Positions 204 through 33,805 of a stretch of 34,506 nucleotides of DNA are shown here, piece after piece. Under the pieces are notes generated by a model. That model worked only from the letters and a program-made list of their open reading frames with translations, made no database searches and was not told where the DNA came from. The stretch comes from a virus. How positions within the stretch are numbered: the first letter of the stretch is position 1; each line of letters begins with the position of its first letter. The stretch covers positions 1 through 34,506 of the IMG/VR virus record IMGVR_UViG_3300046535_001139; one strand, 5' to 3'. A program made the translations under genes and the position numbers.

Positions 204-1033
204 GGATCAGCGCCTTCTCCGATGACCTGGACGACTTGCGGGACGACCGCGTTGCCGAGGGCCCTGAGTCGGTCCACCCGAGCGGGAACCCCATGAGCCA
301 CTCGACCCACGTCGGGTTCAACGCTCCATTCTCCAGCGAAACGACCATCGAGAGCATCAATTGCTTGCCCAAGCGCGCGCGTCGTCGGATGGACGGAAGC
401 GAAAGGTTCCCCCGATCCCTGTCGTCGCCCGCTTGTGGTGTCGGCCACATTCCGGGCGCTGCTCGCACCGCTATCGGAAGGCGATCCAACCGAAGGTGCC
501 CCTTCTGGCCCCAGAGCGCCGCGCCACTGGAGTCCTTGTGATCTCGTGCTGTCGGGGTAGGCCACGATCCAGACTCGTCGTCTGAGGTGAGGCGCTCCGA
601 CATCGGCAGCTGATATGACACACCACTCCGCGTCATACCCGAGGTCGGCCAGATCGCCAAGGACGTTCCCCATTCCACCGTGGCCAGCCAAGAGCCCTGG
701 GACGTTCTCCACGAGGACGAAGTGCGGCTGTAGTACGCGAATGGCGGCGGCAAACTCGGGCCAAAGCCAACGATCGTCGGCAAGCCCCTTTTTGCGCCCA
801 GCGACACTGAACGGCTGGCAAGGGAAGCCTCCGGCCAAAAGGTCAACCCGTTCGACCCCTGACCAGTCAACGGTCGTGATGTCTCCAAATCGGGGAACAT
901 CGGGCCAATGCTTGGCGAGGACTCGCTGGCAGAAGGGGTCCCACTCGACCTGGAAGCGGCAGTTCCATCCGGCTCGCTCGAGGCCGAGATCGATCCCGCC
1001 GATACCGGCGAAGAGGCTGCCGAAGGTCGGCAC
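179..1033 (-). CDS. C5-cytosine DNA methyltransferase (Dcm family)
   Basis: The 284-residue protein has the ordered motifs of C5-cytosine methyltransferases: motif I FAGIGG (about residues 8-13, SAM binding), motif IV PCQ (71-73, catalytic Cys72), motif VI ENV (109-111), motif VIII RRRVW (151-155) and a C-terminal motif X ALGNAVVPQ. It is therefore probably an active enzyme that methylates cytosine C5 in phage DNA. The target-recognition region between motifs VIII and X is short, so the recognised site cannot be read. The start is a GTG just after the stop of the upstream HTH gene. With the second methyltransferase in this operon it most likely protects phage DNA from host restriction. No cognate restriction enzyme is seen. 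Confidence 0.93.
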   Translation of the reverse strand: MPTFGSLFAGIGGIDLGLERAGWNCRFQVEWDPFCQRVLAKHWPDVPRFGDITTVDWSGVERVDLLAGGFPCQPFSVAGRKKGLADDRWLWPEFAAAIRVLQPHFVLVENVPGLLAGHGGMGNVLGDLADLGYDAEWCVISAADVGAPHLRRRVWIVAYPDSTRSQGLQWRGALGPEGAPSVGSPSDSGASSARNVADTTSGRRQGSGEPFASVHPTTRALGQAIDALDGRFAGEWSVEPDVGRVAHGVPARVDRLRALGNAVVPQVVQVIGEGADPWFRLSDI

Positions 1034-1097
1034 GTCACGCCACCCGTCCCCGCGTCCGCTCCACGAGGTAGCGTTCGACCTCGGCCGCGGTGACGAA
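1033..1097. repeat. 65-bp direct repeat, copy 1 (3' end of first HTH gene)
   Basis: These 65 bases recur at 3097-3161 in the same orientation with a single mismatch (C at 1086, T at 3150). The repeat covers the last codons and stop of the HTH gene and runs to within one base of the following methyltransferase start codon. It makes the final 20 residues of the two HTH proteins identical. Confidence 0.95.
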
Positions 1098-1732: not shown

Positions 1733-3102
1733 CCGACGAGCCCCAGCGGCGTCTGCGCGTTGCGGGCCATCGCCTGGACGAGGTACTCGCCGTTCAGGTC
1801 GATGAGGACGGTCCGCCGGCCGAGGGCCTGCGCGACCATGCCAGTCGTGCCGGAGCCTGCGAAGGGATCGAGGACGGTGGCGGCGACGGCGGGCGCGGGC
1901 GTCGTCCAGTCCGTCTCAGGATCTAAGTGGTCGCACGATTGCCGCCACCCGGTCGTGATGTTCTTCGGCGGGACGTTCGTCGGGTGCGTCTTCGGCTGGC
2001 GAGCAGTGTCCGGGTAGCGGACGGCTGGGGGTGTCGTCCATGCCTTCCCGCTGTCGAGCAAGGCGGCGTATTCCGGCGTCAGTTCCACCTCCCTCACCCA
2101 CGGTGCCCCACACTCCCCGCAGACGCCACGCTCCGACGTGCCCGCCTTCACGCACGGCTCGACGAGCTTCGGCGGGAACGTGGCGAAGTGAGCGCCGGGG
2201 TAGGGCGCGGTGGCGATGGTCCAGACGGAGCGGAGGTTACGGCCGGCGGGGTTCATTCCGCCTTCGACTCCACCGCTTTTGCCGTTATCGCCCCACTTCC
2301 CCGTCTCGGCATAGCGGCTGTTGGGATATCTCAGGTGATGGTCGAGCGACTCATGCGGCTCTCTCACCGCGTCGGCGTCGTAGTAGTAGCGGGCCGACTT
2401 CGTGAGCAGGAAGACGTACTCATGGGCCTTCGTCGGGCGGTCGGTGACGGACTCCGGCATGGGGTTCGGCTTCGACCAAATGATGTCGGAGCGGAGGTAC
2501 CAGCCGTCGGCTTGGAGGGCGAAGGCAACCCGCCACGGGATGCCGACGAGGTCCTTGGGCTTGAGGCCGTGCGAGACACGGGGCAAGCGGAGGCCAGCGG
2601 CCTTATTGAGCGTGCCCATCGTCGTCGCCCCGGTCCCGTTGTTGTTGCTCCGCTCGCCCGAGGCCGCGTACGAGTCCCCGAGGTTCAGCCAGAGCGTCCC
2701 GTCCTTCCGCAGCACGCGCCGGACCTCGCGGAAGACGTCGACCATGTTGGCGACGAAGGCTTCGGGCGTGGGTTCGAGGCCGAGCTGCGAGTCCTGACGG
2801 ACGGCACCGCAGCCCTTCGGGCAGTTGCCGCCCTTCGCGGTGCCGTCGCGGGTCGTCCACGACGTGTTGTTCCGCCCGAGCTTGCCGTCGCTGCCGACCA
2901 TGAGCCGGTCGTTGGCGCGAGAAAACAAGTGGTCGCAACCCTCATCCCCGCCGACCCACGTCGCCGTCCCGTAGTCCCGCAGGCCCCAGTAGGGCGGGCT
3001 CGTCACGACGCAATGGACGGACTCCGGTTCCATCGCGGCCATGACCTCACGGCAGTCGCCCTGGTAGACGGTGAGATGGTCGTCGCGGAAGAACGGCGTC
3101 AC
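1729..3102 (-). CDS. Site-specific DNA methyltransferase, beta class (N6-adenine or N4-cytosine)
   Basis: This 457-residue protein carries the amino-methyltransferase motifs in beta-class order: catalytic motif IV SPPYWGLRDYG (35-45) near the N-terminus and SAM-binding motif I DPFAGSGTTG (412-421) near the C-terminus. SPPY fits either N4-cytosine or N6-adenine enzymes, so the base modified is left open. The middle holds several Cys pairs (such as CGECGAPW) that could form a zinc-binding insert and target-recognition region. The start is GTG at 3102, overlapping the upstream HTH stop as GTGA. Its likely job is self-methylation against host restriction, together with the C5 enzyme downstream. 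Confidence 0.93.
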   Translation of the reverse strand: MTPFFRDDHLTVYQGDCREVMAAMEPESVHCVVTSPPYWGLRDYGTATWVGGDEGCDHLFSRANDRLMVGSDGKLGRNNTSWTTRDGTAKGGNCPKGCGAVRQDSQLGLEPTPEAFVANMVDVFREVRRVLRKDGTLWLNLGDSYAASGERSNNNGTGATTMGTLNKAAGLRLPRVSHGLKPKDLVGIPWRVAFALQADGWYLRSDIIWSKPNPMPESVTDRPTKAHEYVFLLTKSARYYYDADAVREPHESLDHHLRYPNSRYAETGKWGDNGKSGGVEGGMNPAGRNLRSVWTIATAPYPGAHFATFPPKLVEPCVKAGTSERGVCGECGAPWVREVELTPEYAALLDSGKAWTTPPAVRYPDTARQPKTHPTNVPPKNITTGWRQSCDHLDPETDWTTPAPAVAATVLDPFAGSGTTGMVAQALGRRTVLIDLNGEYLVQAMARNAQTPLGLVG

Positions 3103-3161
3103 GCCACCCGTCCCCGCGTCCGCTCCACGAGGTAGCGTTCGACCTCGGCTGCGGTGACGAA
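3097..3161. repeat. 65-bp direct repeat, copy 2 (3' end of second HTH gene)
   Basis: Second copy of the repeat at 1033-1097, with 64 of 65 bases identical. It again spans the end of an HTH gene and the junction with a methyltransferase gene; here the methyltransferase start codon lies within the repeat. Confidence 0.95.
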
Positions 3162-10410: not shown

Positions 10411-12219
10411 CTATGTCCCGAGGAGGGCGGCGCCGTTGAGGGCGCTGGTGTCGAGGATGAACAGGCCCGTCACGACGGTCGAGCGCGGCTCGATCCCAAA
10501 CGTCGTGTCCCACTGCGCGGCGGCCGTGCTGACGTGGTAGTCGATGCGGTTGACGATGCCGGTGATTGCTGCGGCCTGGACGCGCCGGACGTTGACCGAG
10601 ATCGAATCGCCGAGGGACCGAGCCACCGCAGTCGGGAAGATGTTGGTGACCGTGGGGCTGGTCCGCGGGATCGTCCCCGGATAGCGCTCGACCAGTCGTT
10701 GGGCGAGGCTGCCCGCGATCGGCGTGGACGAGATGAAGTCGGCGCTGACCGTATTGCCGACGAACGTCCCGAGGGTGCTCGTCGTCGTATAGGTCGCCGA
10801 AGCCGGGACGGCGGTCTGGACGGTGCCGAAGACGCTGAGCTCCGTGACAAGGGCGTCGGATCCGCCCGCGGTGATGACGATCTTGGCCGAGTGGTTGAAG
10901 GCCGTCATGACCACGCTCGGCGAGCCGGTGGCGGTATAGCCGACGACGGCTCCCGTGGTCCCATCGGCGAAGCTCGCCCAATAGGTCGCGCTGGTTCCCG
11001 CCGGGAGGCTGATCGGGACCTCGGTCGACTCCCAGATCGTGCCCGGCACGTCCGGTTGGCGGAGCGAGTAGTCGACGCGCTGCACCGTCCGGATGTCGTC
11101 GGGCAGCCAATCCAGCTGCGCCCCGGTGATGGTGTCGTCGATCGTATCGGCGAGCGCCTGGGTGAGCATCTGGTAGTCGGTCTTGGTGACGTACTGGAAC
11201 AGGACCGACGGGCTAGGGTCGTAGTCGACGTAGCCGAGCGACTCGGTCGATTGGTCAACCGAGGCAAGGAGCGAGACGGCGTCGGCCTCGTCGGCGCCCG
11301 TCAGCGGCTTGTTGGCCTCGTAGTCCATGACCGAGAGCGACCGCCGCCCGGCAGGCTCGCCGATGGCATCGAGGATGGCGCCGCGGAACTCGGAGATGGA
11401 GCGCGTCAGAGAGGAGGCGATACTGATCGAGTTGAACGTCGCCCAGCCCGCCACCGGATCCTCGCAGAAGAGCGAGACGAACTTGTCAACGACGTTCGGG
11501 CTGACACGCTTGACCGTGCCATAGAAGAGGCCGTAGGGGATGCCCGCGTAGGAGGCGCGGGCGTAGACGACCCGCCCGATCTGGAGCTCGAACGGCAGCA
11601 CGCCGTCGGTGTAGATGAGGTCGTCGTTCTTGACGTTGAGGGTCATCGTGCCCCGCGCCGGGCCGCCCTCGAAGTTCGCGCCGAGGCTGGCGTTGAGGTC
11701 GTCGATGCGCGAGGTCAGGTCGTCGGCGACGGCATAGACCTCGGCGTCATCAATGTCGACGGTCATGATGGCCGCCGAGTTCGTGTAGACGTTGACCTGG
11801 ATGTCAGTCCGGTTGCCGGTCGGCGTGAAGTCGACGGAGTAGGCGGCCCACGACGCTGTGACCGTGAAGGTGCTCACCGCCCGGTCGCCGACGGTCCCGA
11901 GCGAACCGATGCGGATGCCACAGGTCGTCGCGCCCGAGATCGACTTCAGGTAGACGCGGAAGCGGTAGGCGACACCCGACGAGAAGCTCGAGGACATGAC
12001 GAACTTGACGCCGGAGCCATTGGTGGCGGTCGTGACCAGCCGGCCAACTGCGGCGCCCATATACGGCGCGGACACCGTCCGGGTGATGGATGTCGCGGCT
12101 GCCTGGATGCCAGCCGCCACCGACCAGCCCGAGGTGTCCGTCTCGAAGCCGTCATTGGCGAGGCGGGTGAGGCCGAGCTGGTCGAAGTTGACCCGGACGT
12201 CGAGGAGCGGGACGGCCAT
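10411..12219 (-). CDS. Tail hub/baseplate protein with N-terminal carbohydrate-binding module
   Basis: The 602-residue protein begins with a short strand (VPLLDVRVNFDQLG), then a carbohydrate-binding-module-like jelly roll (NDGFETDTSGWSVAAG to about residue 160). It continues with a segment typical of siphophage hub proteins (FEGGPARGTMTLNVKNDDLI, ELQIGRVVYARASYAG, VSLFCEDPVAGW). Later beta-rich domains run to the C-terminus. It sits directly after the tape measure gene (1-base overlap), where distal tail and hub proteins are expected. The CBM insertion suggests contact with host glycans. Confidence 0.75.
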   Translation of the reverse strand: MAVPLLDVRVNFDQLGLTRLANDGFETDTSGWSVAAGIQAAATSITRTVSAPYMGAAVGRLVTTATNGSGVKFVMSSSFSSGVAYRFRVYLKSISGATTCGIRIGSLGTVGDRAVSTFTVTASWAAYSVDFTPTGNRTDIQVNVYTNSAAIMTVDIDDAEVYAVADDLTSRIDDLNASLGANFEGGPARGTMTLNVKNDDLIYTDGVLPFELQIGRVVYARASYAGIPYGLFYGTVKRVSPNVVDKFVSLFCEDPVAGWATFNSISIASSLTRSISEFRGAILDAIGEPAGRRSLSVMDYEANKPLTGADEADAVSLLASVDQSTESLGYVDYDPSPSVLFQYVTKTDYQMLTQALADTIDDTITGAQLDWLPDDIRTVQRVDYSLRQPDVPGTIWESTEVPISLPAGTSATYWASFADGTTGAVVGYTATGSPSVVMTAFNHSAKIVITAGGSDALVTELSVFGTVQTAVPASATYTTTSTLGTFVGNTVSADFISSTPIAGSLAQRLVERYPGTIPRTSPTVTNIFPTAVARSLGDSISVNVRRVQAAAITGIVNRIDYHVSTAAAQWDTTFGIEPRSTVVTGLFILDTSALNGAALLGT

Positions 12220-13937
12220 CAGGAAAGGATCGACTGGCGCCGCAGCTCGCGGACTAGCTCGGGTACGACGGTCTGCGAGAACCGCTGCTGGTCGGCGGTT
12301 GAGCTGACGAGCGGCGCATAGGTCATGTTGACGACGACGCTACCGCCCGAGCCGCCTGAACTACCACCGCCGGTGCCCGGCAGGACGAAGCCGCCGCTGC
12401 TGCCCATGACGAGCGTCTCCCGGCCATGTTCGCCGACGGTGTAGGTGTTGCCCGCGGTGACAGGTCCGCCCGTGGCTCGTGGGATCGGCTGGCCTGGATG
12501 GGCGATGGCGTATTGCAGGGCAATCGCCGCGTCCTTGATCCGGCTTTCCGCGGTCGTGGCCCGGTCGCGCAACTTGATGAGGAGGGCGATCTCATCAAGG
12601 ATCACGGCGCGCTCGGCTCCGTGCGCCTTCCCTAGTCGCGTGAACAGGCTGCTCATCGCCTTCGCGACGCCCGACGCTCCCTTCGCGCCAGCCGCCGCGA
12701 GGTCGAGGAGATAGCTCTCCTGGTCCTTCCCGAGCTGGTGGAGGGCCTCCCGCGCGTCCTTCTTCTGGGCCGCAGTCGCAGTCTTCGAGGCGAGGATGCG
12801 CTCGTTCTTGGCGATGTCGGCGTTGGTCGCGAGGAGCTTGTCGTTGGTGATAATCGGGTCGTAGTAGCCATCGATCAGCGCCTGCGCGTCAGCCTTGAGG
12901 CCCCTGACCATGTCCTCGGATGATTGCTTGACCCCATCGAGAGCGCCGGCCGTGGTGTCCGCCGCATCGCCGACATCGCCGAGCGCTTTGGCGTTACTGG
13001 CAGCGGCCTCGCTGCCGGTGTCGAAGGACTTCGCTGCATCGTACTGGGCCTTCGTATAGCCCGTCAGCGGATCAATGCCCTGCTGGATCTCGTAGTTGAT
13101 CTCGGTGACGGACTTGCCCGTCAGCTGCACGGCTTCGGCGAGATTGATCTGCTTCTTCGTCCAGTCGCCCGTCATGGCCGTCGCATCTCGGAACGGCTTG
13201 CCGAGTGCGTCCATGACGACCATGAGGCCGTTGAGTGCATCCACGACGAGCGGCAGGATGACCCCGCCGAACTGCTCCATCGCCTCGCCGATGCGGACCT
13301 GGGCGGCGAGGAGCTTGCCACCGGCCGTGTTGGCATATGCCTCGGCCTGTCCCGATGCCACCTTCTCGACAGCGGCCAGTGCCTCGGTTGCCGTAGCGTT
13401 CTTCGGCAGCTGGATGCCGAGCGCCTTCAGCGCTCGGTACTGGCCGCCCTCGACCTTGATCAGCGCGTTCGACGCATCCTGCAGCGAGATGCCCTTGAAC
13501 CGCGCGAGGTCCATCGCGACGTTCTGGATCTCCTGGGCCTTGGCGACGTCGTGGGTCGCACCGACCAGCAGCGCGAGGCTGTTGCGGAGATCGTCGTCCA
13601 TGAAGCCCAAGCGCTGGGCCGACAGGATGTTCTTCTCGATGGCGTCGGTGTTGCCGGCGAAGCCCGGGATATTCGCCTTGAGCGAGGCGCCGAGCCTCTT
13701 CTGGCTCTCCTCGTCCTGCATCGCCGCCTTGATGGCGTCGCCGAGGAAGCCGACTGCCCCGGCCGCGGCGTCCTCGATAAGACCGAACCCGACCGCGACG
13801 GCCTTGGCGCCGACGTTGCCGAAGAGGCTGGCCGCACTGCCCTTGCCGCCGAGCCGGTCGAAGTTGTCTGCGATCTTGGCCAGGGAGCCGCTGACCTTGT
13901 CGTCGAGCGTCGCCTTGAACTTGATCTCGTTGCTCAC
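12219..13937 (-). CDS. Tape measure protein
   Basis: The 572-residue protein is helical and Ala-rich with tape-measure hallmarks: an N-terminal KATLDDKVSGSLAKIADNFD, hydrophobic helices (VAVGFGLIEDAAAGAVGFLG, FGGVILPLVVDALNGLMVVM), a region of TMP type (FKGISLQDASNALIKVEGGQ) and a Gly-rich C-terminus. Tape measure proteins set tail length at about 0.15 nm per residue, which would give a tail of roughly 85 nm. It is placed after the tail assembly genes and before the hub, and its start overlaps the preceding stop by 4 bases. Confidence 0.9.
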   Translation of the reverse strand: MSNEIKFKATLDDKVSGSLAKIADNFDRLGGKGSAASLFGNVGAKAVAVGFGLIEDAAAGAVGFLGDAIKAAMQDEESQKRLGASLKANIPGFAGNTDAIEKNILSAQRLGFMDDDLRNSLALLVGATHDVAKAQEIQNVAMDLARFKGISLQDASNALIKVEGGQYRALKALGIQLPKNATATEALAAVEKVASGQAEAYANTAGGKLLAAQVRIGEAMEQFGGVILPLVVDALNGLMVVMDALGKPFRDATAMTGDWTKKQINLAEAVQLTGKSVTEINYEIQQGIDPLTGYTKAQYDAAKSFDTGSEAAASNAKALGDVGDAADTTAGALDGVKQSSEDMVRGLKADAQALIDGYYDPIITNDKLLATNADIAKNERILASKTATAAQKKDAREALHQLGKDQESYLLDLAAAGAKGASGVAKAMSSLFTRLGKAHGAERAVILDEIALLIKLRDRATTAESRIKDAAIALQYAIAHPGQPIPRATGGPVTAGNTYTVGEHGRETLVMGSSGGFVLPGTGGGSSGGSGGSVVVNMTYAPLVSSTADQQRFSQTVVPELVRELRRQSILS

Positions 13938-14860: not shown

Positions 14861-14903
14861 CCCAAGGTGAGGGGGCCGGGCGGCCTTGGGTCCGCCCGGC
14901 CCC
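14861..14903 (-). terminator. Strong hairpin after major tail gene, possible pseudoknot
   Basis: A perfect 12-bp GC stem (14872-14883 with 14892-14903) encloses an 8-nt loop reading ACCCAAGG on the transcribed strand. It begins 8 bases after the major tail gene stop codon. No T-run follows, so it is more likely a partial terminator or transcript 3' stabiliser. The loop is perfectly complementary over 7 bases to CCTTGGG at 14867-14861, which overlaps the ribosome site of the chaperone gene, so an H-type pseudoknot is possible. Confidence 0.7.
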
Positions 14904-14910
14904 ATGAGGG

Positions 14911-15903
14911 TTAGGTGATCGCGGCCGTGGCGTTGGTGATGGTGATGGAGGTCGAGCTCGTGCTCGTGGTGTCATAGACGGGCTCGAGCGTCAGGACCTC
15001 GGTCACGATGTCGTTGACCTGGTTCCAGTCGCGCGCGGTGTAGACGCCGTACATGTCCTGCTGGACGATGTAGTTCGTGCTGCCGAGGGCCGCGCCGGTC
15101 GTCAGGACGCGGACCTTGCGGATCGTCTTCGCCTGGTAGGCCGAGAACTCGGTCGCGACGTTGTACTGGCGGGTGATCTGCGCCGTCCAGGTTCGGTGCT
15201 GGGGCCGGTAGACGGCCTGCGCCGCAAGCGTGCCGTCGAGGGCGTAGAACGGGACCGGGTTGAGGTTGAGCGTGAAGTCGACCGCGGTGACGGCGCTGTC
15301 GGCCGTGGTCCCGATCGTCGTCGTGTCGATCTTGACGACGGTGTTGTTGCAGGACACCGGCACCGTCGTCCGGTCCGAGAGGGCGCCGGTGAACGCCGTG
15401 ATCTGGGTCAGCGCCTTGGCATAGAGATAGGTCGCGTCGAAGGTCAGCGCCCCATCGGCGTTCTTCTCGTAGTGGAGGTTGAGCGTCTGGCCCATGCCGT
15501 AGGCGAGCGAGATGCCGGGCGAGGTGGCGATGGCCGCCGAGTCGCCGAGCTGGAGGCAGTGCGTCTTCACGTCATCTGACGTGTTCGTCGGGACGAACGC
15601 CCAGAGCTTGTCTGCGCCGGCGCCCGTCCCCGACGCGACCGCCTTGTAGAACCCGTTGCAATGCCAGATGAGGTCGTCGTAGGACGCTCGACCCGTCATC
15701 TGGACAGTCGTCGTCTCGGGACCGGCCGCCGCCTGGAAGAAACCCTCGTAGCTGGCACGAAGCTCCTCGGGCCGGATCGTCTGGACGTTGTAGGTCGGGT
15801 TGAACGCCTCCGCGTAGATGATCCGGGTCGGCGTGATCGCCGTTCCTCGCGTCACCTCGAGCGCCGCGCGCGCCGAAGTGAAGACCGTCATCGGCACGCC
15901 CAT
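14911..15903 (-). CDS. Major tail (tube) protein
   Basis: The 330-residue protein has the look of siphophage tail tube proteins: ARAALEVTRGTAITPTRIIY, then EELRASYEGFFQAAAGPETT, repeated beta strands and a Thr/Ser-rich C-terminus that may form an Ig-like or exposed end. Location between the tail terminator and the tail chaperone fits. AGGAGG 9 nt upstream of ATG 15903 gives strong initiation. The gene is bracketed by a conserved leader hairpin upstream and a 12-bp hairpin downstream, the same layout as the capsid gene, consistent with high expression. Confidence 0.85.
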   Translation of the reverse strand: MGVPMTVFTSARAALEVTRGTAITPTRIIYAEAFNPTYNVQTIRPEELRASYEGFFQAAAGPETTTVQMTGRASYDDLIWHCNGFYKAVASGTGAGADKLWAFVPTNTSDDVKTHCLQLGDSAAIATSPGISLAYGMGQTLNLHYEKNADGALTFDATYLYAKALTQITAFTGALSDRTTVPVSCNNTVVKIDTTTIGTTADSAVTAVDFTLNLNPVPFYALDGTLAAQAVYRPQHRTWTAQITRQYNVATEFSAYQAKTIRKVRVLTTGAALGSTNYIVQQDMYGVYTARDWNQVNDIVTEVLTLEPVYDTTSTSSTSITITNATAAIT

Positions 15904-15906
15904 CGG

Positions 15907-16110
15907 TTATGCCTCCTGTGAATCAGAAGAGCCGACCTGTTCGGTCGGCTCTGGGGTGGTCTTGGGCGTCCGCGCCCTTGGCGATGGTTTGGGCTTCGCT
16001 TTCACCGTGAACGCGCCCGACTCGACGCAACGCGGGTCGGTGCACTCGTGCTCGACCGCCGGAACGTCGTTGAGCCAGCGGCCCTCGACGGGGACGACGG
16101 TTCGACTCAT
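15907..16110 (-). CDS. 67-residue hypothetical protein before major tail gene
   Basis: This small protein (ATG 16110, ATGA overlap with the tail terminator gene) contains HECTDPRCVESGAF, a possible small metal or disulfide site, followed by a Lys/Pro/Thr-rich tail. Its last codons contain the stem-loop that precedes the major tail gene, so the C-terminal residues (QVGSSDSQEA) may be dictated by the RNA structure. The role is unknown. Confidence 0.6.
   Translation of the reverse strand: MSRTVVPVEGRWLNDVPAVEHECTDPRCVESGAFTVKAKPKPSPRARTPKTTPEPTEQVGSSDSQEA
15915..15952 (-). promoter_or_regulatory. Leader hairpin element of major tail gene (copy 1)
   Basis: On the transcribed strand a 10-bp stem (15952-15943 with 15937-15928, loop GAACA) is followed by TCTGATTCAC and then AGGAGG. 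The 13 bases 15930-15918, TCTTCTGATTCAC, are identical to 24674-24662 in front of the capsid start, and in both cases exactly 14 bases separate this sequence from the start codon. The stem sequences differ but both are 10 bp, which suggests a conserved RNA structure that controls translation or transcript ends. Confidence 0.7.
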
Positions 16111-16571
16111 GGCGCGACTCCTGTGGCAAGTTCCCAGATCTGGACGTGGACCATGAGCTCGACAACGTCGAACGGATCGCCGCCGGGCGTGTTGAGCGGG
16201 CTGGCGTAGTTCTGGCCGTCCGGCTCGATCCGCATCTCGGTCGGCAGGGCCTGGGTCACGCCGGCGATGCCGAGGGTGAAGCCCTGCTCCATGATCGGGC
16301 GGAGGGCCGTGGCCCATGCGTACAGCCATTGGGTCCGCTCGGGCATGTTGATCGGGTCTCGCAGCAGCCGCACCGGGAAGTCGAGGTCGTCATTGTGGTG
16401 AGCGATGTTCAGCGACAGGGGTCCGGTCGGCGGATAGACCAGCAGCGCCAGCCCGGCCACCTGGTTCGGCAGGTCGGCCGTGGCCGTGGCCGACTCGGTC
16501 GCGCTGCCGTTGGTCGCGGTGACGGTGCCGAAGCGCGCGGCGATTCCGTCGGCGATCGTCTTATAGTTCAT
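16107..16571 (-). CDS. Tail terminator / head-tail completion protein
   Basis: The 154-residue protein starts with MNYKTIADGIAARFGTV, like siphophage tail completion proteins. It continues with beta strands including QVAGLALLVYPPTG and DFPVRLLRDPINMPERT, and a C-terminal strand (DVVELMVHVQIWEL) typical of the tail terminator fold. Placement right before the major tail protein region and after the connector supports this. It overlaps both neighbours by 4 bases. Confidence 0.7.
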   Translation of the reverse strand: MNYKTIADGIAARFGTVTATNGSATESATATADLPNQVAGLALLVYPPTGPLSLNIAHHNDDLDFPVRLLRDPINMPERTQWLYAWATALRPIMEQGFTLGIAGVTQALPTEMRIEPDGQNYASPLNTPGGDPFDVVELMVHVQIWELATGVAP

Positions 16572-17512
16572 CCGACGAGCGGGATGCGATACATGTCGAG
16601 CGTCACCCGATCGGCCCCACTCATGTCAGGCAGCAGGATCTCGGTGCCGTTGGGGCCGATCGCCACGGCCGCGCCGCCGCCGCCCTTGCCGAGGTAGCGC
16701 CGCGAGACGGCCCGGACGGCGACGCCCTGGATGTCGGCCGGGACCGATGCGAAGCCGAAGCCGCCCGTGACCTGGACGGTGTTGTAGCCGGGGTAGAAGA
16801 AGCTCGCGCCACCGGTCGGGTAGGGCGTGACCTCCAGCCGCGTCGCCGGTCCGTCGGCGTTGGGCTTGGGCCGCAGCAGGAAGTCGGCCACGGTGCCCGA
16901 GGCGTAGGTGCCGCTGACCTCAGGCTGGCTGACCGTCGCGATGCCGATGCTGGTGAGCCGCCGGATGCCGGTCAGGCGACCGCCCTGCTCCAGCGTCAGC
17001 TGGCGCCGCGCCCAATAGCCATACGGTTGCCACGGGACGTCGAAGAGGAGCGTCGTGTCGCTCGCGGGGTTCGTCGGGCGAGGCGCGATCCACTGCCCGA
17101 GGAGATGCTCGATCGCGACCGACACCTGCTTGATCTTCTCGAGGATCAGCTCGTCGTCGGTGGTCGAGGTGAGGCCAAGCTCCTGCTTGACGTCATAGAT
17201 CGAGCAGAGCTGGCCCGACGTCTCGTCGCCGACCTGGAACGGATCCGACCAGTCCGAGAGCCGGGTGGCGCCGGCATTCTCGAACCTTGACCGATACCAG
17301 GTCGAGACGATGCCGTTGGGGTCGTAGCCGGTGTACGCCCGGACGGCCGTCACGACGGGGATGGTCGGCGTCCCGCCAGTGCCCGAGACATCGGCGAACG
17401 AGCCCGTCGCCGTGGCGGCCCACTGGACGCGGATCAGCGCGCCCGCCGCATAGGCGCCGGCGTTCAGGATCTCGTCCGGGTTCTCGACCGTGACCTTGAG
17501 GACGTTCGGCAC
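16568..17512 (-). CDS. Head-tail connector with extra N-terminal Ig/FN3-like domain
   Basis: The 314-residue protein appears to be a fusion. Residues 1-90 look like a fibronectin-III-type domain (LIRVQWAATATGSFADVSGT, YDPNGIVSTWYRSRFENAGA, RLSDWSDPFQVG). From about residue 100 it matches gp6-like head-tail connectors (IYDVKQELGLTSTTDDELIL, KQVSVAIEHLLGQWI) with a C-terminal beta domain. The connector part would join the portal ring to the tail. The Ig-like addition would be exposed at the neck. It starts at GTG 17512, shortly after the repeat-protein stop. Confidence 0.72.
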   Translation of the reverse strand: MPNVLKVTVENPDEILNAGAYAAGALIRVQWAATATGSFADVSGTGGTPTIPVVTAVRAYTGYDPNGIVSTWYRSRFENAGATRLSDWSDPFQVGDETSGQLCSIYDVKQELGLTSTTDDELILEKIKQVSVAIEHLLGQWIAPRPTNPASDTTLLFDVPWQPYGYWARRQLTLEQGGRLTGIRRLTSIGIATVSQPEVSGTYASGTVADFLLRPKPNADGPATRLEVTPYPTGGASFFYPGYNTVQVTGGFGFASVPADIQGVAVRAVSRRYLGKGGGGAAVAIGPNGTEILLPDMSGADRVTLDMYRIPLVG

Positions 17513-17517
17513 CGACG

Positions 17518-19098
17518 CTACCTCTGTGGCTTAGGATTGCTGCCCGAGCCGCCCGGTGACGAGGAGGAGGCGCCGCCGGGCGGCGGGCCAAGGATGTTGG
17601 CGATGGCGTTGGCGACCGCGCTGACTGCCGAGGCGATGGCCGGCGGCAGGCCGCCAACGATCGTGGCCGTGAAGTTGAGATCTCGGACCAGGGTGCCGAC
17701 GAACGATAGGGTCGCCACCAATGCGCGGAAGGTCTGGCGGCCAACCGTCCCGATGAACGAGAGCGTCGAGGCGAGCACCGCCGCGATCCGGCGGACCACC
17801 GTCCCCGAGAAGGAGAGCGTCGCGGCGAGCGCCTTGCCGGTCCGCTTGCTGAATGCACCAGCGAAGGACAGAGTTGCCGTCAGTGCCTTGATGATGAGAT
17901 GGATGCCCTGGAGATTCCCGACGAATGACAGGGTCGCGGTGAAGGCGCGTCGGACGTTCCGGTTGACGTCTCCGACGAAGGAGAGCGTCGCCGTCAGGAC
18001 GTAACTCGTCCGGCGGCTGAGGGCCCCCACGAAGGCGAGCGTGCCCGCGAGCGCCTGCTGGTAGGTCTGCGGACCGCCGACCTTGGCAGCTGCGAACCCT
18101 CCGACGAAGCTCAGGACGCCAGCCAGCGTCTTGCCGGTCCGCTTGGTGAGGCTCCCCACGAAGGACAGCGTCGCCGTGAGAACGTGGGCGACAGCCCGCG
18201 TCAATGCCCCGACGAACGACAGGGTGGCGGTGAAGCCGCGCGCCGTCTGCCTGGCGAGGGCCCCGATGAAGGACAGCGTCGCCGTGAACGCCCGTGCGGT
18301 TCGCTTGGCAAGCGCTCCCGTGAACGAGAGGGTGCCCGTCAGGACGTGGGCGATAGCCCGGTTGAGGTTGCCGACGAATGACAGCGTCCCGGCGAGGACG
18401 TGACTCGTCAGCCTCGTCTGCGAACCGACGAATGAGAGCGTGCCCGTCAGCGCCCGCGTGAACGACTTGACGGTGCCGAACCCGCCGACGAAGGAGAGCG
18501 TCGCGGTCAGGCCGCGGCTGGTCTGCTTGACGAGGCTACCGGCGAAACTGAGCGTGCCGGTCAGACCGCGGCTGACCCGACGATTGAGCGATCCGACGAA
18601 CGAGAGCGTCGCGGCCCATGGCCGGAGCGTCTGCTTGACGAGGTTGCCCGCGAAGGACAGCGTCCCGGTCAGGGCCTTGATGACGAGGTGCGTCGCCTGA
18701 AACGCACCGACGAACGAGAGCGTGGCGGCCAAAGCCCGCGCCGTCAGCTTGGTCAGGAGCCCGACGAAGCTCAGGGTCGCCGTGAGGACATGCGCGATGC
18801 GCCGGCTCTGCGCTCCGATGAACGAGAGGGTGCCCGTCAGGACGTGGGCGATGAACCTGACCAGGAGCCCGACGAAGGCGAGCGTCGCCGACAGGCCGCG
18901 CCGCGTCTGCTTGGCAGCCGCACCGACGAAGGAGAGCGTCGCTGCCGCCAGGGGATAGGTCGTGAGCTTGGTCTGCGTGCCCGCAAAGGACAACGTCCCG
19001 GCGAGGTTCGACTGATACGTCTGCGGCCCGGTCGCGGCGACCGGGATCGGCCTCCGGTTGGCGCTGCCGAAGATCCGCCGCCGGGAGAAGGTCGCCAT
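17518..19098 (-). CDS. Large 18-residue-repeat basic protein, virion region, unknown
   Basis: The 526-residue protein is made almost entirely of 24 tandem units of about 18 residues with the core TLSFVG (variants TLAFVG, TLSFAG, VLSFVG) followed by a polar, Arg/Lys-rich turn such as ALTKRTAR. I count 52 Lys/Arg, two Asp, no Glu and no Cys. Four units are longer (20-25 residues), and some blocks recur (GPQTYQ twice; THLVIKAL and IHLIIKAL). An Ala-rich hydrophobic helix (PAIASAVSAVANAIANIL) and a Gly/Ser/Pro tail end it. Period and strand pattern suggest a beta-solenoid. Strong initiation (AGGAGG before ATG) and its place in the head-neck block suggest a virion part. No known family is recognised. 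Confidence 0.85.
   Translation of the reverse strand: MATFSRRRIFGSANRRPIPVAATGPQTYQSNLAGTLSFAGTQTKLTTYPLAAATLSFVGAAAKQTRRGLSATLAFVGLLVRFIAHVLTGTLSFIGAQSRRIAHVLTATLSFVGLLTKLTARALAATLSFVGAFQATHLVIKALTGTLSFAGNLVKQTLRPWAATLSFVGSLNRRVSRGLTGTLSFAGSLVKQTSRGLTATLSFVGGFGTVKSFTRALTGTLSFVGSQTRLTSHVLAGTLSFVGNLNRAIAHVLTGTLSFTGALAKRTARAFTATLSFIGALARQTARGFTATLSFVGALTRAVAHVLTATLSFVGSLTKRTGKTLAGVLSFVGGFAAAKVGGPQTYQQALAGTLAFVGALSRRTSYVLTATLSFVGDVNRNVRRAFTATLSFVGNLQGIHLIIKALTATLSFAGAFSKRTGKALAATLSFSGTVVRRIAAVLASTLSFIGTVGRQTFRALVATLSFVGTLVRDLNFTATIVGGLPPAIASAVSAVANAIANILGPPPGGASSSSPGGSGSNPKPQR
17674..18996 (-). repeat. 24 tandem repeats, about 54 bp each, within a coding gene
   Basis: The repeats encode the TLSFVG units of the protein above. 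Unit length is mostly 54 bp, with four longer units. Bases differ a good deal between units while the peptide core is kept, which points to selection on the protein and not to recent slippage. Confidence 0.85.
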
Positions 19099-23096: not shown

Positions 23097-23126
23097 GAGG
23101 GGCGGCGGGCTTGGGCGCCGCCCCTC
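23097..23126 (-). terminator. Strong hairpin after capsid gene
   Basis: A perfect 11-bp stem (23097-23107 with 23116-23126) with loop CCCAAGCC on the transcribed strand begins 7 bases after the capsid stop. There is no T-run. The loop shares CCCAAG with the hairpin after the major tail gene, and CTCAC follows the stem region in both. It is probably a partial terminator or RNA stabiliser. Confidence 0.7.
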
Positions 23127-23132
23127 TGGTGA

Positions 23133-24647
23133 CTACAGGAAGCGAAGGGTCCGGCCGGCATCCACGTTGAGTGGCTTGGCCGTGTTGCGGTACAGGAAGT
23201 AGAGCGCCTGCTGGCCGGTCACGAGGTTGCCCTGGCCGGAGCCGAAGATGAACGGGATGAACTGGACGGAGAGGCCGACGCGATCGACGATCACGTACTG
23301 GTTCGGGTTGAGGAGCGTCCCGGCGGTGATGGTGGTCGTGGTTGCCGTCGGCAGCGACGGCGACTCGTTGACCGGGTAGCCCAAGAGGCTCAGGCCGGTG
23401 TTGCCCTGGGTCGAGATGTCGATCTTGCCGACGGACGGGAAGTAGATCGACCCGCCGAAGAGCTGGCCGCCCGTGGTCTCCAACGCCTGGAACTTGCGGA
23501 TGTTGGTGCGGTTCATGAACCACTGGGCGTTGAACCGATGACGGACCGGGAGGGCCGCCTCGGTCGCGATGGCATCGGCCGCCGCGAGGACGCCGGAACC
23601 GGCGCCCGCGACCGCGGTGTAGGCGCCCGAGGTGCCGGACGCCGGGCCGACGCCGATCGGTGCGGTGGCCGGGCCGATGGCCCCGCCGACGCCCGTGGCG
23701 AAGGCAGTCTCTTCCTCGTTGTCCTTGGCCTCCTGGATGAGGCCGCCGAGCTCGCCGCCGAGGTCCGGCCGGTCCTGGAACTCCTCGAAGGAGGCCGTGA
23801 TCTGGCCCTGGACGCGGGTCACGATGTACTGGGGCTGGGCGAACGTCGGACCCTGCTCGATGGCCGCTGCGGCCTCGGTCGTCCGGGTCGCGACGACCGC
23901 GGTGGCGGTCACGGCGTTCCAGGTGTCGGTGCCGACGATGTCGACGACCCGGCAGGTGGCCCGGTACGGGTTCACCGCGCCGCCATGGACGCCGATGGCG
24001 ATGATCGTCGGGTCGAAGGCGAACGGGACGGTGAAACCGCCGGTGGCATCCACGCCAACGGCGAGGGCCGTACCGCGCTGCTCCTCGGGCGTGAAGCCCC
24101 AGGTCTCGCCGCGGCTGGTGATGAACTTGTGGAAGGCCCGCTCGTAGGCCGGCGCACTGGTGAACTTGATCCGGCGGGCGAGCTCCTTGTCGGGCGAATC
24201 ATGGTGGTCGAGGAGGTCGGCGATCCGGTCCCGGCTCCGCTGCGAGTCGGCAAGCTTCGTCGGGAAGGTGATCTTCTCGATGATCCGCATGGCGTCGTCG
24301 CGGTACTCGGCCATCCGGCCCTCGAACGAGGCGGACCTCGTCTCGGGGCTGTGGAGCTCGGCCTCGGACTTGCGGTTGACCTGGTTGCGGTCGACGGGCG
24401 GCTCGTAGGTCCGCTCGACGCCCCCGGGCTGCCGCTCGGGCACGGCGATGAGCCGCTTCTGGCGCGACTCCCACGCCTCGAGGTCCTTGCCCAGCCGGTC
24501 GCGCTCCTCGGCGTCGGTGTCCCAGCGGACCTGCTCGTCGTCGGGCATGACGCCGGGGTACTTCTCGGCGACGGACCGGAGGCTGTCGTTGAGGTCAGTC
24601 CATCGCTCCCGCTTCTCGTCGATGGTGGTCAGTTCTTGGCTCTCCAC
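23133..24647 (-). CDS. Nested major capsid protein (internal GTG start)
   Basis: A GTG at 24647 in the same frame would give a 504-residue capsid protein, close to the usual length for HK97-type capsids with a scaffold-like delta domain (ELTTIDEKRERWTDLNDSLR and following coiled coil). GAGGAG lies 7 nt upstream. The 13-base sequence and 10-bp hairpin found before the major tail start recur here at the same distance (14 bases) from the start codon. This gives a way to make hundreds of capsid subunits per few protease copies. It is an inference from sequence; no protein data are available. Confidence 0.6.
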   Translation of the reverse strand: MESQELTTIDEKRERWTDLNDSLRSVAEKYPGVMPDDEQVRWDTDAEERDRLGKDLEAWESRQKRLIAVPERQPGGVERTYEPPVDRNQVNRKSEAELHSPETRSASFEGRMAEYRDDAMRIIEKITFPTKLADSQRSRDRIADLLDHHDSPDKELARRIKFTSAPAYERAFHKFITSRGETWGFTPEEQRGTALAVGVDATGGFTVPFAFDPTIIAIGVHGGAVNPYRATCRVVDIVGTDTWNAVTATAVVATRTTEAAAAIEQGPTFAQPQYIVTRVQGQITASFEEFQDRPDLGGELGGLIQEAKDNEEETAFATGVGGAIGPATAPIGVGPASGTSGAYTAVAGAGSGVLAAADAIATEAALPVRHRFNAQWFMNRTNIRKFQALETTGGQLFGGSIYFPSVGKIDISTQGNTGLSLLGYPVNESPSLPTATTTTITAGTLLNPNQYVIVDRVGLSVQFIPFIFGSGQGNLVTGQQALYFLYRNTAKPLNVDAGRTLRFL

Positions 24648-25652
24648 GGGTGCGCTCCTCGGTGAATCAGAAGACCCGCCTTCCGGCGGGCCTTGGGGCT
24701 TGGCCGCTGCCACCGTTCCGGGTGGTTCGGCTGCGTTCATGGACATGTCGTCCTCGTCGTTGTCGGGCGGCTCGAGGTGCTCAATGGCAGCCTCGAGGAG
24801 CTCGGCTTCCTGCGCGAGCAGGGGTTCGCCGTTGGCCAGCTTGTCGATCGCCACGCTGAGGGCGGCCTTGTCGGCGAGCAGGAAGGCGGCGAGGTCGTCG
24901 AGGCTGCGCCTCAACTGGACGATCCGGGCAGTGTCCATGCGGAGCGGCTCGGGAGGAGTGCTCGATGGCGGCTGACTGGACGGGGTCGCGGCTCCGGACT
25001 TCGGAGTGCGGGCGATGGCGGCGGAGCGCAGCAGTTCCTCGAATGCCTCGGGGTCGCGGCTGCGCTGGTAGAAGGTGTCGGTCGTCGAGCGGGCGCCGAC
25101 GGTGGCCTTGGGGTTGGCCGGGAACGTCACCGGGCCGAACTCGTAGACGCGGGCCTCGGTGATCGTCCGCTCGGGGATGCCTTCGGGGTTGTGGTCGGAG
25201 CGGGCCGGGCTGTAGTCCCAGACGTCCTTCTCGACGCTGAAACGGAAGGACGCGCCGTAGACGCCGGCCTTGAGGCCGGGAGCGAGGTCCCGGTTGTAGG
25301 ACGTGTCGAAGAGCGGCACCGTGAACTTCGGGCCGCGACTGTCCGTCCGGAGCTCCTCGATGGGGCCGAGGATCTTGTTGCCGATCTGGGGATCCGCGCC
25401 GTGGTCGAAGAGGACCTTCATCGAGGAACGGCTCTCGGCGATCGTCTTGTCGAACGCGCGCTTGCCGATCGTCTCGAGGAAGTGGCCCTCGATCATGCTC
25501 TCGACGACATAGGGGTCGCCGAAGGTCGAGAAGTGGCCGACCATCGTCGGCATCGCGCCGCTGCCGGTGGTCTCCACGGGCTCGGCGACGGCGCGGGTCA
25601 CGGGAAACGGCAGGCGCGCGGGCGGGATCGCGGCCAGGTCTTCGGGGTTCAT
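23133..25652 (-). CDS. Joined prohead protease - linker - HK97 major capsid protein
   Basis: One open frame from ATG 25652 encodes 839 residues. Residues about 35-190 are a U35-type prohead protease (VGHFSTFGDPYVVESMIEGH, catalytic His84 in LFDHGADP, Ser135 in YGASFRF, acidic residues in ITEARVYEFGPVTFPANP). Residues about 200-335 are a helical, disordered linker that may serve as scaffold. From Val336 an HK97 capsid protein follows (delta-like coil, then GVDATGGFTVPFAFDP, MNRTNIRKFQALET and C-terminal RTLRFL). Fused protease-capsid genes are known in some phages. An internal start at 24647 with its own leader suggests that capsid protein is also made alone. Confidence 0.88.
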   Translation of the reverse strand: MNPEDLAAIPPARLPFPVTRAVAEPVETTGSGAMPTMVGHFSTFGDPYVVESMIEGHFLETIGKRAFDKTIAESRSSMKVLFDHGADPQIGNKILGPIEELRTDSRGPKFTVPLFDTSYNRDLAPGLKAGVYGASFRFSVEKDVWDYSPARSDHNPEGIPERTITEARVYEFGPVTFPANPKATVGARSTTDTFYQRSRDPEAFEELLRSAAIARTPKSGAATPSSQPPSSTPPEPLRMDTARIVQLRRSLDDLAAFLLADKAALSVAIDKLANGEPLLAQEAELLEAAIEHLEPPDNDEDDMSMNAAEPPGTVAAAKPQGPPEGGSSDSPRSAPVESQELTTIDEKRERWTDLNDSLRSVAEKYPGVMPDDEQVRWDTDAEERDRLGKDLEAWESRQKRLIAVPERQPGGVERTYEPPVDRNQVNRKSEAELHSPETRSASFEGRMAEYRDDAMRIIEKITFPTKLADSQRSRDRIADLLDHHDSPDKELARRIKFTSAPAYERAFHKFITSRGETWGFTPEEQRGTALAVGVDATGGFTVPFAFDPTIIAIGVHGGAVNPYRATCRVVDIVGTDTWNAVTATAVVATRTTEAAAAIEQGPTFAQPQYIVTRVQGQITASFEEFQDRPDLGGELGGLIQEAKDNEEETAFATGVGGAIGPATAPIGVGPASGTSGAYTAVAGAGSGVLAAADAIATEAALPVRHRFNAQWFMNRTNIRKFQALETTGGQLFGGSIYFPSVGKIDISTQGNTGLSLLGYPVNESPSLPTATTTTITAGTLLNPNQYVIVDRVGLSVQFIPFIFGSGQGNLVTGQQALYFLYRNTAKPLNVDAGRTLRFL
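24662..24694 (-). promoter_or_regulatory. Leader hairpin element of capsid start (copy 2)
   Basis: On the transcribed strand, 24694-24685 pairs with 24680-24671 as a 10-bp stem (one G-U pair) with a GGAA loop, running into TCTTCTGATTCAC (24674-24662), then GAGGAG and GTG 24647. The layout equals that at 15915-15952 before the major tail gene although the stems differ in sequence. The element lies inside the protease-capsid open frame, where it encodes a Gly/Ser/Asp/Pro linker. Confidence 0.68.
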
Positions 25653-32501: not shown

Positions 32502-32774
32502 CTATCGTTCCTCGAACAGCACGGAACCGGGCGGCAAGGCGTCGTCCACGATCACCGTCCAGCCCGCGATCTGCTGCTCGATCGAGGCGTCAACCGCCGG
32601 GTCGGCGGCCACGAGCCGATCCCACTCGTCTCGCGAGATGCGCCATTGCATCGGCAGCCGCTCGCCGAGGACGCGAGGCTCCACGCGCTTCGTCCGGGGG
32701 TTGACCCATGGGATGCGCTGGAAGGGCACGATGCCCCGCTCGTCCAGGATCGCGGCGTAACGGGTGAGGCTCAT
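32502..32774 (-). CDS. Hypothetical protein beside attP
   Basis: The 90-residue protein (ATG 32774, ATGA overlap upstream) has TRYAAILDERGIVPFQRIPW, RISRDEWDRLVAADP and an end TVIVDDALPPGSVLFEER. Its ribosome site (AAGGAGA) lies inside the last codons of the preceding cassette gene. Its 3' end runs into the nearest arm-type site. Not recognised. Confidence 0.6.
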   Translation of the reverse strand: MSLTRYAAILDERGIVPFQRIPWVNPRTKRVEPRVLGERLPMQWRISRDEWDRLVAADPAVDASIEQQIAGWTVIVDDALPPGSVLFEER

Positions 32775-33049
32775 GCCGTCTCCTTCTCCGCCTGCCGGGA
32801 CAGGGCGGCCCCGAGTGCCTCGATGTCGTCCTGCATGAACTCACCACCGGCAGCGCGTGATAGGCGGTCATACACCCGCTGCGCCGCCTCTCGCAGCCCC
32901 GCGTCCGTGACGGGGGCGGCGGCGAGGGCGAGTCGCTCACGGATGTCCTCTTCGGCCCCGCACTCGACGTGGGACAACCCGCGGGCGTCATAGTCCCGAC
33001 GATGTTCCAGCATCGCCGCGAGGTCCGGTCGCTCTGGTGCGGGGGTCAT
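32771..33049 (-). CDS. Cassette paralogue 1 (MTPAPERPDL...EKETA)
   Basis: The 92-residue protein starts MTPAPERPDLAAMLEHRRDY, has the shared APVTDAGLREAAQ segment in the middle and ends ALSRQAEKETA. The same start, middle and end recur in the next two genes upstream. The final codons (GAG AAG GAG ACG GCA TGA) hold the ribosome site and the overlapping start of the following gene. The unique middle is helical. Function unknown. Confidence 0.65.
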   Translation of the reverse strand: MTPAPERPDLAAMLEHRRDYDARGLSHVECGAEEDIRERLALAAAPVTDAGLREAAQRVYDRLSRAAGGEFMQDDIEALGAALSRQAEKETA

Positions 33050-33769
33050 GCCGTCTCCTTCTGCCGGGACAGGGCGGCGTACTCGGCGACGATCTCCTCG
33101 GTGCGGTCCTCGCGGTCGGTCGTGTGTTCCCAGTCGTATCGGACGCTGATCGCGTAGATGGCCTGCCGAAGCCGCTCCACGTCCAGCCCCGCGTCCGTGA
33201 CGGGGGCGAGGTACTGGTTGCCGAAGTCATCGACGGCGGGCTGGTGCGTCCCGGCCGCGATGGCAGCGAGGTCCGGTCGCTCTGGTGCGGGGGCGCTCGG
33301 GACGTAGGGAACGCCATCCCACGGGCGGGCGTCGCGGTGGCGGGTCTGGAGGTCCGGTCGCTCTGGTGCGGGGGTCACGCCGTCTCCTTCTCCGCCTGCC
33401 GGGACAGGATGTCGCGGACGTAGTTGACCGCCGCGACGATCAGTGCGGCGTCGGCGTGGCCGTTCCGGTAGCGCATGTCCGCGATGTTCCTGCCGTTGGC
33501 CGTCAGGTGGCCCGTGACGAAACCCGGAGTCGTGGTAGCCGCCCACGGCCCCGGTGTTGCCTCATCGGAGAGTTGCTGCCACGGTCCATCTCGCAGCCCC
33601 GCGTCCGTGACGGGGGCGGCGGCACCGTTGCTGTCCCAATGCGAGCCACCGACTGGGCCGATCTCATCGAGCATGTCGAGCACGGCGGCCACACAGACGC
33701 ACGGCTGCCCGTCGGGATGCAGCGCCTCGATCCGCGCCCGGAGGTCCGGTCGCTCTGGTGCGGGGGTCA
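33021..33769. repeat. Four copies of a 26-28 bp repeat across the cassette genes
   Basis: A sequence beginning AGGTCCGGTCGCTCTGGTGC occurs at 33021-33048, 33269-33294, 33350-33377 and 33742-33769. Three copies form the 5' ends of the cassette genes (coding for TPAPERPDL) and one lies inside cassette 2. Two further shared blocks encode the PVTDAGL segment and the AEKETA ends. Confidence 0.9.
33046..33378 (-). CDS. Cassette paralogue 2
   Basis: The 110-residue protein starts at GTG 33378 (TPAPERPDLQTRHRDARP), has a second internal APAPERPDLAAIAAG, the APVTDAGLDVERL middle and ends ALSRQKETA. Internal repetition shows that the N-terminal segment was duplicated. Overlaps on both sides are 4 bases. 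A strong AAGGAGA ribosome site lies before the start inside the previous gene. Unknown function. Confidence 0.62.
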   Translation of the reverse strand: MTPAPERPDLQTRHRDARPWDGVPYVPSAPAPERPDLAAIAAGTHQPAVDDFGNQYLAPVTDAGLDVERLRQAIYAISVRYDWEHTTDREDRTEEIVAEYAALSRQKETA

Positions 33770-33770
33770 T
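33375..33770 (-). CDS. Cassette paralogue 3
   Basis: The 131-residue protein starts MTPAPERPDLRARIEALHPD with AAGGAGAA upstream; ATG 33809, which overlaps the previous stop as ATGA, would add 13 residues. It contains CVCVAAVLDMLDEIG, the AAPVTDAGLRD segment, and then a common phage motif SDEATPGPWAATTT with NGHADAALIVAAVNYV, ending ILSRQAEKETA. The ATPGPW-type family is widespread in phages but has no known function. Confidence 0.65.
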   Translation of the reverse strand: MTPAPERPDLRARIEALHPDGQPCVCVAAVLDMLDEIGPVGGSHWDSNGAAAPVTDAGLRDGPWQQLSDEATPGPWAATTTPGFVTGHLTANGRNIADMRYRNGHADAALIVAAVNYVRDILSRQAEKETA

Positions 33771-33805
33771 CCGTTCTCCTTCACTCGGTTCAGCAGCCTG
33801 ACGAG

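What the first reader, a model, noticed from the sequence alone, without database searches (positions are those of the whole stretch)
24647..24694. Nested capsid start inside a protease-capsid gene, marked by a leader shared with the major tail gene
A 10-bp stem-loop followed by an identical 13-base sequence (TCTTCTGATTCAC) and a start codon exactly 14 bases later occurs twice: before the major tail ATG (15903) and in front of an in-frame GTG (24647) within the 839-codon protease-capsid frame. Both have a strong ribosome site. The stems differ in sequence but not in length. This suggests that capsid protein is made both as a rare protease fusion and as an abundant stand-alone 504-residue protein.
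Basis: partly seen in the sequence, partly recalled or inferred. Interest (0 to 1): 0.8.

Follow-up and report, generated by a model that had tools for sequence, protein, structure and literature searches.

The report
Capsid gene nested inside protease gene
In these soil phages the coat protein seems to have its own start signal inside the longer protease-coat gene, marked by a small RNA hairpin that recurs before the tail gene and before unrelated coat genes, so many phage genes annotated as one 'protease-capsid fusion' may in fact make two proteins.

Summary

An in-frame ATG/GTG with a Shine-Dalgarno lies at the homologous capsid start in 60 of 62 fused relatives, including cultivated Rhodococcus phages, and relatives with separate genes start the capsid there. 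A second, distant fusion family (RRH1, GMA5, Rahul, McGonagall) also has a nested ATG at one shared column.

The leader is a nucleic-acid element. Its stem keeps pairing through sequence change, it uses rare codons, and it stays while protease or capsid is swapped. In two phages it is intergenic, before separate, sequence-unrelated capsids. Across 1.1 Mb, strong matches occur only at capsid or tail starts, once at a protease-capsid start. Many fused relatives lack it, so it is an optional add-on.

Most likely: it boosts a separate capsid (and tail) cistron, while the fusion supplies protease tethered to capsid. Strong hairpins also follow the capsid stop in 85% of loci. Expression ratios and mechanism are untested. 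Fusions, nested genes and start-associated repeats are each known; the nested start and this leader appear undescribed.

The parts
23133..25652 (-). Fused ORF, 839 aa: S78 prohead protease (res 31-189), linker, HK97-type capsid (Pfam hit res 538-800)
   Evidence: Pfam PF04586 E 4e-20 and PF05065 E 9e-18, PHROG 80 and 10; fusion seen in 62 of 86 distinct capsid relatives
23133..24647 (-). Nested in-frame capsid ORF, 504 aa, from GTG 24647
   Evidence: homologous start conserved with Shine-Dalgarno; AF2 model pLDDT 76, N-terminal helices, PDB match to capsids
24671..24694 (-). Leader hairpin at the capsid start, 10 bp, loop GGAA
   Evidence: pair changes across relatives
24662..24674 (-). Shared 13-mer TCTTCTGATTCAC
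   Evidence: CTGAT in 23 of 23 distinct capsid leaders
24655..24660 (-). Shine-Dalgarno GAGGAG of the nested capsid start
   Evidence: -7.9 kcal/mol, best of 28 in-frame start codons in the fused ORF
23097..23126 (-). Hairpin just after the capsid stop, 11 bp, loop 8, no T-run
   Evidence: a strong hairpin here in 67 of 79 relatives against 1.9% of control windows
15928..15952 (-). Leader hairpin before the tail gene, 10 bp, loop GAACA, different stem sequence
   Evidence: (z -4.7)
15918..15930 (-). Second exact copy of TCTTCTGATTCAC
14911..15903 (-). Putative major tail protein gene, 330 aa
   Evidence: Position between head-tail adaptor (16568-17512, phrog_442) and tape measure (12219-13937, phrog_1538); 40%-identical homologue in L028 matches tail family phrog_290 E 2e-7. 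AF2 model too poor to test
14872..14903 (-). Hairpin just after the tail stop, 12 bp, loop 8
15907..16110 (-). Small upstream gene whose last codons contain the tail leader hairpin (ends GSSDSQEA)
   Evidence: start at 16110 is my choice within the 140-aa ORF

Best explanation
The protease-capsid ORF holds two cistrons in one frame. Ribosomes starting at 25652 make the 839-aa fusion; others start at GTG 24647 and make the 504-aa capsid protein (scaffold-like helical N terminus plus HK97 fold). The capsid half of the fusion would let it co-assemble and carry the protease into the procapsid. The GTG is served by a leader module: tight hairpin, short pyrimidine-rich unpaired spacer, Shine-Dalgarno. 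The same module stands before the putative major tail gene. It probably raises initiation on, or preserves mRNA for, the two most abundant virion proteins. Shown by comparison: conserved nested start, the leader as a nucleic-acid element, its placement, its exchange between genomes. Inferred: that both proteins are made, their ratio, co-assembly, and how the hairpin acts.
For: Nested start: in-frame ATG/GTG within 9 codons of the homologous position and SD of -5 kcal/mol or better in 60 of 62 fused loci. Best-in-window SD mean is -7.8 against -4.6 in 1158 control windows. Relatives with separate genes start the capsid at the same place. Rhodococcus REQ1 and Jflix2, annotated as fusion or protease, have AAGGAG(T/C)ATCCCCATG there, and Madraxi a weaker form. 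RRH1, GMA5, Rahul and McGonagall share a nested SD+ATG at one alignment column. Leader: stem pairing kept through change (90% of cells paired; score 0.201 against 0.125 shuffled, 0 of 500; slid versions 33-55%). TCT is 1.7% of Ser codons but is used twice in a row. A model built without it found the leader before a 40%-identical tail homologue in L028. In L207 and L208 the leader is intergenic after the protease gene's stop, before a separate capsid; L208's has no BLASTP similarity to the window's. The leader stays while flanks are swapped: L110 and L080 have identical hairpins, 65% protease-side and 39% capsid identity; L005/L103 79/41; L003/L004 41/76.
Against: No expression or proteomic data. 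The fusion start also has a good SD (-7.4), so a rare fusion is not implied by sequence. Predicted SD accessibility is the same with and without the hairpin (0.46 and 0.49, p 0.73), which does not support simple insulation. Many fused relatives lack the hairpin, and the tail genes of L110 and L064 lack it.
Confidence: 0.72

Rival explanations
1. Segmental mRNA processing and stability: a long late transcript is cut near the leader, and the 5' and 3' hairpins protect the capsid and tail pieces from decay. The nested start is still used; the hairpin acts on RNA lifetime, not on initiation.
For: Strong hairpins without a T-run follow the capsid stop in 67 of 79 loci against 1.9% of controls. In the window only the capsid and tail genes have both a leader hairpin and a strong 3' hairpin. 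L028's tail has both too.
Against: Tails of L111 and L113 have the leader but no 3' hairpin. No cleavage data. The conserved TGATTC and tight spacing to the SD point to initiation. The 3' hairpins occur widely without the leader and may simply be terminators.
Confidence: 0.3
2. The hairpin is an intrinsic transcription terminator or attenuator.
For: GC-rich stem followed by a T-containing run; a similar stem without TGATTC or SD lies between convergent ORFs in L096 (5476-5502).
Against: The terminator scan does not call either site. There is no room for a promoter in the 14-20 nt before the start. In most loci the hairpin is inside translated sequence. CTGAT is 23 of 23 and spacing to the SD is nearly fixed, neither needed for termination.
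Confidence: 0.12
3. The conserved stretch is a peptide feature, such as a protease-capsid linker or cleavage site (PPxGGSSDS).
For: In fused loci it is read in the same frame as GG(S)SDS, and the tail upstream gene also ends GSSDSQEA.
Against: Intergenic in L207 and L208. Residues vary while base pairing holds. Rare Ser codons are kept.
Confidence: 0.03
4. The element is kept only as a recombination boundary between protease and capsid modules.
For: Clear mosaicism across it.
Against: Compensatory stem changes, tight SD spacing and use before tail genes with other flanks are not needed for homology-driven exchange.
Confidence: 0.05

Closest known systems
Start-Associated Sequences (SAS/ESAS) of cluster K mycobacteriophages and cluster EF Microbacterium phages (PMC3203893, PMC7302621)
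   Same: A short conserved sequence right before start codons, with an inverted repeat upstream in about half of the cluster K sites; function unknown.
   Different: SAS is 13 bp GGGATAGGAGCCC containing the SD, 11-19 copies, in the non-structural half. Here there are 1-2 copies per record, before structural genes, unrelated sequence, hairpin 10 bp, SD outside the conserved 13-mer.
Phage lambda C/Nu3 in-frame nested genes (lambda scaffold-protease fusion cited in PMC5513430; nested start from general knowledge)
   Same: Protease fused in frame to an assembly protein that is also made from an internal start.
   Different: In lambda the nested product is the scaffold; here it is the capsid protein itself.
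Protease-capsid fusion genes of actinobacteriophages (PMC5513430, PMC7302621, PMC13313380)
   Same: Same domain order, S78 protease then HK97-type capsid, in one ORF.
   Different: In the passages I read they are described as single fused genes; no internal start is mentioned.
T7 gene 10 leader and T-phi terminator (general knowledge)
   Same: Leader with hairpin, U-rich stretch and strong SD before the major capsid gene, and a hairpin after it.
   Different: No sequence relation; T7 gene 10 is not nested in a protease gene.

Membership tests
HK97-type major capsid protein | Match to capsid family models and HK97 fold | tested here: met
   PF05065 E 9e-18, phrog_10 E 6e-34; model matches Mycofy1, GTA and HK97 capsids, best E 1e-15
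S78 prohead protease | Match to Peptidase_S78 | tested here: met
   PF04586 E 4e-20
In-frame nested gene (lambda C/Nu3 kind) | Conserved internal start with SD at the domain boundary | tested here: met
   60 of 62 fused loci, control
In-frame nested gene (lambda C/Nu3 kind) | Both proteins made | not testable with these tools
   needs proteomics or ribosome profiling
Cluster K SAS/ESAS | 13-bp consensus GGGATAGGAGCCC | tested here: not met
   Shared 13-mer is TCTTCTGATTCAC, read directly against the published consensus
Cluster K SAS/ESAS | Many copies among non-structural genes | tested here: not met
   One or two sites per record, all at structural genes
Intrinsic terminator | GC stem followed by at least 5 T in 8 bases | tested here: not met
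   not called by the scan
Any Rfam family | Score above gathering threshold | tested here: not met
   no match in the window
Major tail protein | Fold or family match of the 330-aa protein | tested here: inconclusive
   no PHROG match itself, homologue matches phrog_290, AF2 pLDDT 38, no PDB profile hit

The most novel reading that the evidence does not exclude
A mobile, structural-gene-specific RNA leader, possibly read by a phage-coded factor, that coordinates capsid and tail-tube synthesis and is exchanged between unrelated capsid genes; and nested capsid starts as the general mode of expression of 'protease-capsid fusion' genes.
Probability: 0.25. Interest if true: 0.8.

Novelty: new variant of a known kind. 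Interest (0 to 1): 0.62.

Why it matters
How a phage with protease and capsid in one gene gets hundreds of capsid subunits but few proteases is an open stoichiometry question. A conserved nested start answers it simply, changes the annotation of many cultivated phages, and can be tested directly in REQ1, Jflix2 or GMA5. The leader is a small portable element tied to major virion genes.

Tried and rejected
Rfam: no match. Leader in cultivated phages and plasmids: none; the weak hit in Streptomyces phage JustBecause is an intergenic stretch between two minus-strand genes. Tail protein structure: model too poor for a fold search, no PDB profile hit, no relatives in cultivated phages. Insulation of the SD by the hairpin: no accessibility difference. 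Host: genome scan gave only a distant Streptomyces prophage (36%), so the host is probably actinobacterial but not settled. A taxon-wide search of host genomes with the leader model could not be set up. SallySpecial shows no clear nested start at the shared column; BlueFeather and Maggie have candidates at other columns. L096's second model hit lacks TGATTC and SD and is not counted as a leader. The nested start was picked as the best SD within 73 codons, so it was compared with best-of-window controls.

Full report
OBSERVATION. All features are on the minus strand and at the stated places. The 13-mer TCTTCTGATTCAC occurs exactly twice in 34.5 kb, each time partly inside the 3' arm of a 10-bp hairpin and followed by GAGGAG or AGGAGG and a start codon 14 bases later. 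The loops are 4 and 5 nt. RNA folding gives these hairpins as the local structure at both sites. The window is a 34,506-base viral record.

THE PROTEINS. The 839-aa ORF is an S78 protease followed by an HK97-type capsid. The 504-aa nested product holds the whole capsid domain plus about 200 N-terminal residues predicted as helices (9-29, 36-72), as expected for an internal scaffold (delta) domain. The AF2 model (pLDDT 76) matches capsids of Mycofy1, GTA and HK97. The gene at 15903 is a putative major tail gene, by synteny and by a tail-family match of its homologue; its own model failed.

NESTED START IN RELATIVES. Two relative searches gave 87 distinct capsid loci. In 62 fused loci, 60 have an ATG or GTG within 9 codons of the homologous position with SD energy of -5 kcal/mol or better. 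The best SD at this place averages -7.8 against -4.6 for best-of-window controls elsewhere in the same ORFs. Relatives with separate genes begin the capsid at the same place. On the capsid tree fused and separate states change at least 8 times. The start codon is mostly GTG in fused loci (45 of 62) and ATG in separate or undetermined ones (22 of 24). The cultivated Rhodococcus phages REQ1 and Jflix2, annotated as head maturation protease or as protease-capsid fusion, carry AAGGAG(T/C)ATCCCCATG there; Madraxi has AAGGAAGATTCCTATG. A distant fusion family gave the same picture: RRH1, GMA5, Rahul and McGonagall each have an SD+ATG at alignment column 348.

LEADER. Among relatives the hairpin plus TYCTGATTC plus AGGAG stands at the nested start in 23 distinct forms. 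Stem pairs change on both sides in several loci while pairing holds. The loop varies, and CTGAT is invariant in those 23. The embedded codons TCT TCT are rare in this genome: TCT is 1.7% of Ser codons. A covariance model searched over about 1.1 Mb found strong matches only at capsid starts and tail starts and, in L215, at the start of a protease-capsid ORF. One hit was a prediction: the model was built without L028's tail site and found it directly before a 40%-identical tail homologue. Not every tail gene has it: L110 and L064 lack it.

NOT A PEPTIDE SIGNAL. In L207 and L208 the protease gene ends with a stop, then comes the leader in untranslated sequence, then GTG of a separate capsid gene. 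L208's capsid is a Phage_capsid member with no BLASTP similarity to the window's. So the same leader serves an ordinary intergenic capsid start there and is embedded in a fused frame here. This is the strongest argument that GTG 24647 is a true start. (That the gene before the leader is the protease rests on its position between portal and capsid; neither Pfam nor PHROGs matched it.)

MOSAICISM. The leader sits at a module boundary. Pairs of loci share near-identical hairpins but differ strongly on one side: L110/L080, hairpin identical, protease side 65%, capsid 39%; L003/L004, 41% and 76%.

DOWNSTREAM HAIRPINS. A strong GC-rich hairpin lies just after the capsid stop in 67 of 79 loci against 1.9% of control windows. 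It has no T-run in the window. In the window only the capsid and tail genes have both a leader and a strong 3' hairpin. These may be terminators of the kind without a T-run or 3' stabilisers. They open the rival that both hairpins set mRNA lifetime.

HOW IT WORKS. I favour a discrete high-expression cistron: hairpin, unpaired pyrimidine-rich spacer, SD. The simple idea that the hairpin frees the SD found no support, so RNA processing or factor binding remain open. The fusion would act as a capsid-tethered protease (inference). The relative amounts of the two products are unknown.

KNOWN OR NEW. Protease-capsid fusions are documented, as are start-associated repeats with inverted repeats.

Noticed in passing
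window 17518-19098 (-): A 526-aa protein between the capsid and head-tail adaptor genes made of about 18-residue repeats (LTATLSFVGALxRxT), from a 54-nt DNA repeat with 17 copies; function unknown.
   Followed up: no
window 32768-33793 (-): Four to five copies of a repeat spanning ribosome site, ATG and first codons (GGAGACGGCATGACCCCCGCACCAGAGCGACCGGACCTC), so several small genes share one start region (families D7, D8, D15).
   Followed up: no
window 1033-1097 and 3097-3161: Two 65-nt copies at 98% identity, 2064 bp apart (D16).
   Followed up: no
window 23097-23126 and 14872-14903; 67 of 79 relatives: Strong hairpin with no T-run just after the capsid stop, and in window and L028 also after the tail stop.
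   Followed up: yes
L215:2365-2415: Same leader placed before the ATG of the whole protease-capsid ORF; the nested GTG downstream there has AAGGAG but no hairpin.
   Followed up: partly
L096:5476-5502: Same stem without TGATTC or SD between convergent ORFs, terminator-like.
   Followed up: partly
62 fused and 24 other capsid loci: Nested capsid starts are mostly GTG (45 of 62), starts of the other (separate or undetermined) loci mostly ATG (22 of 24).
   Followed up: no
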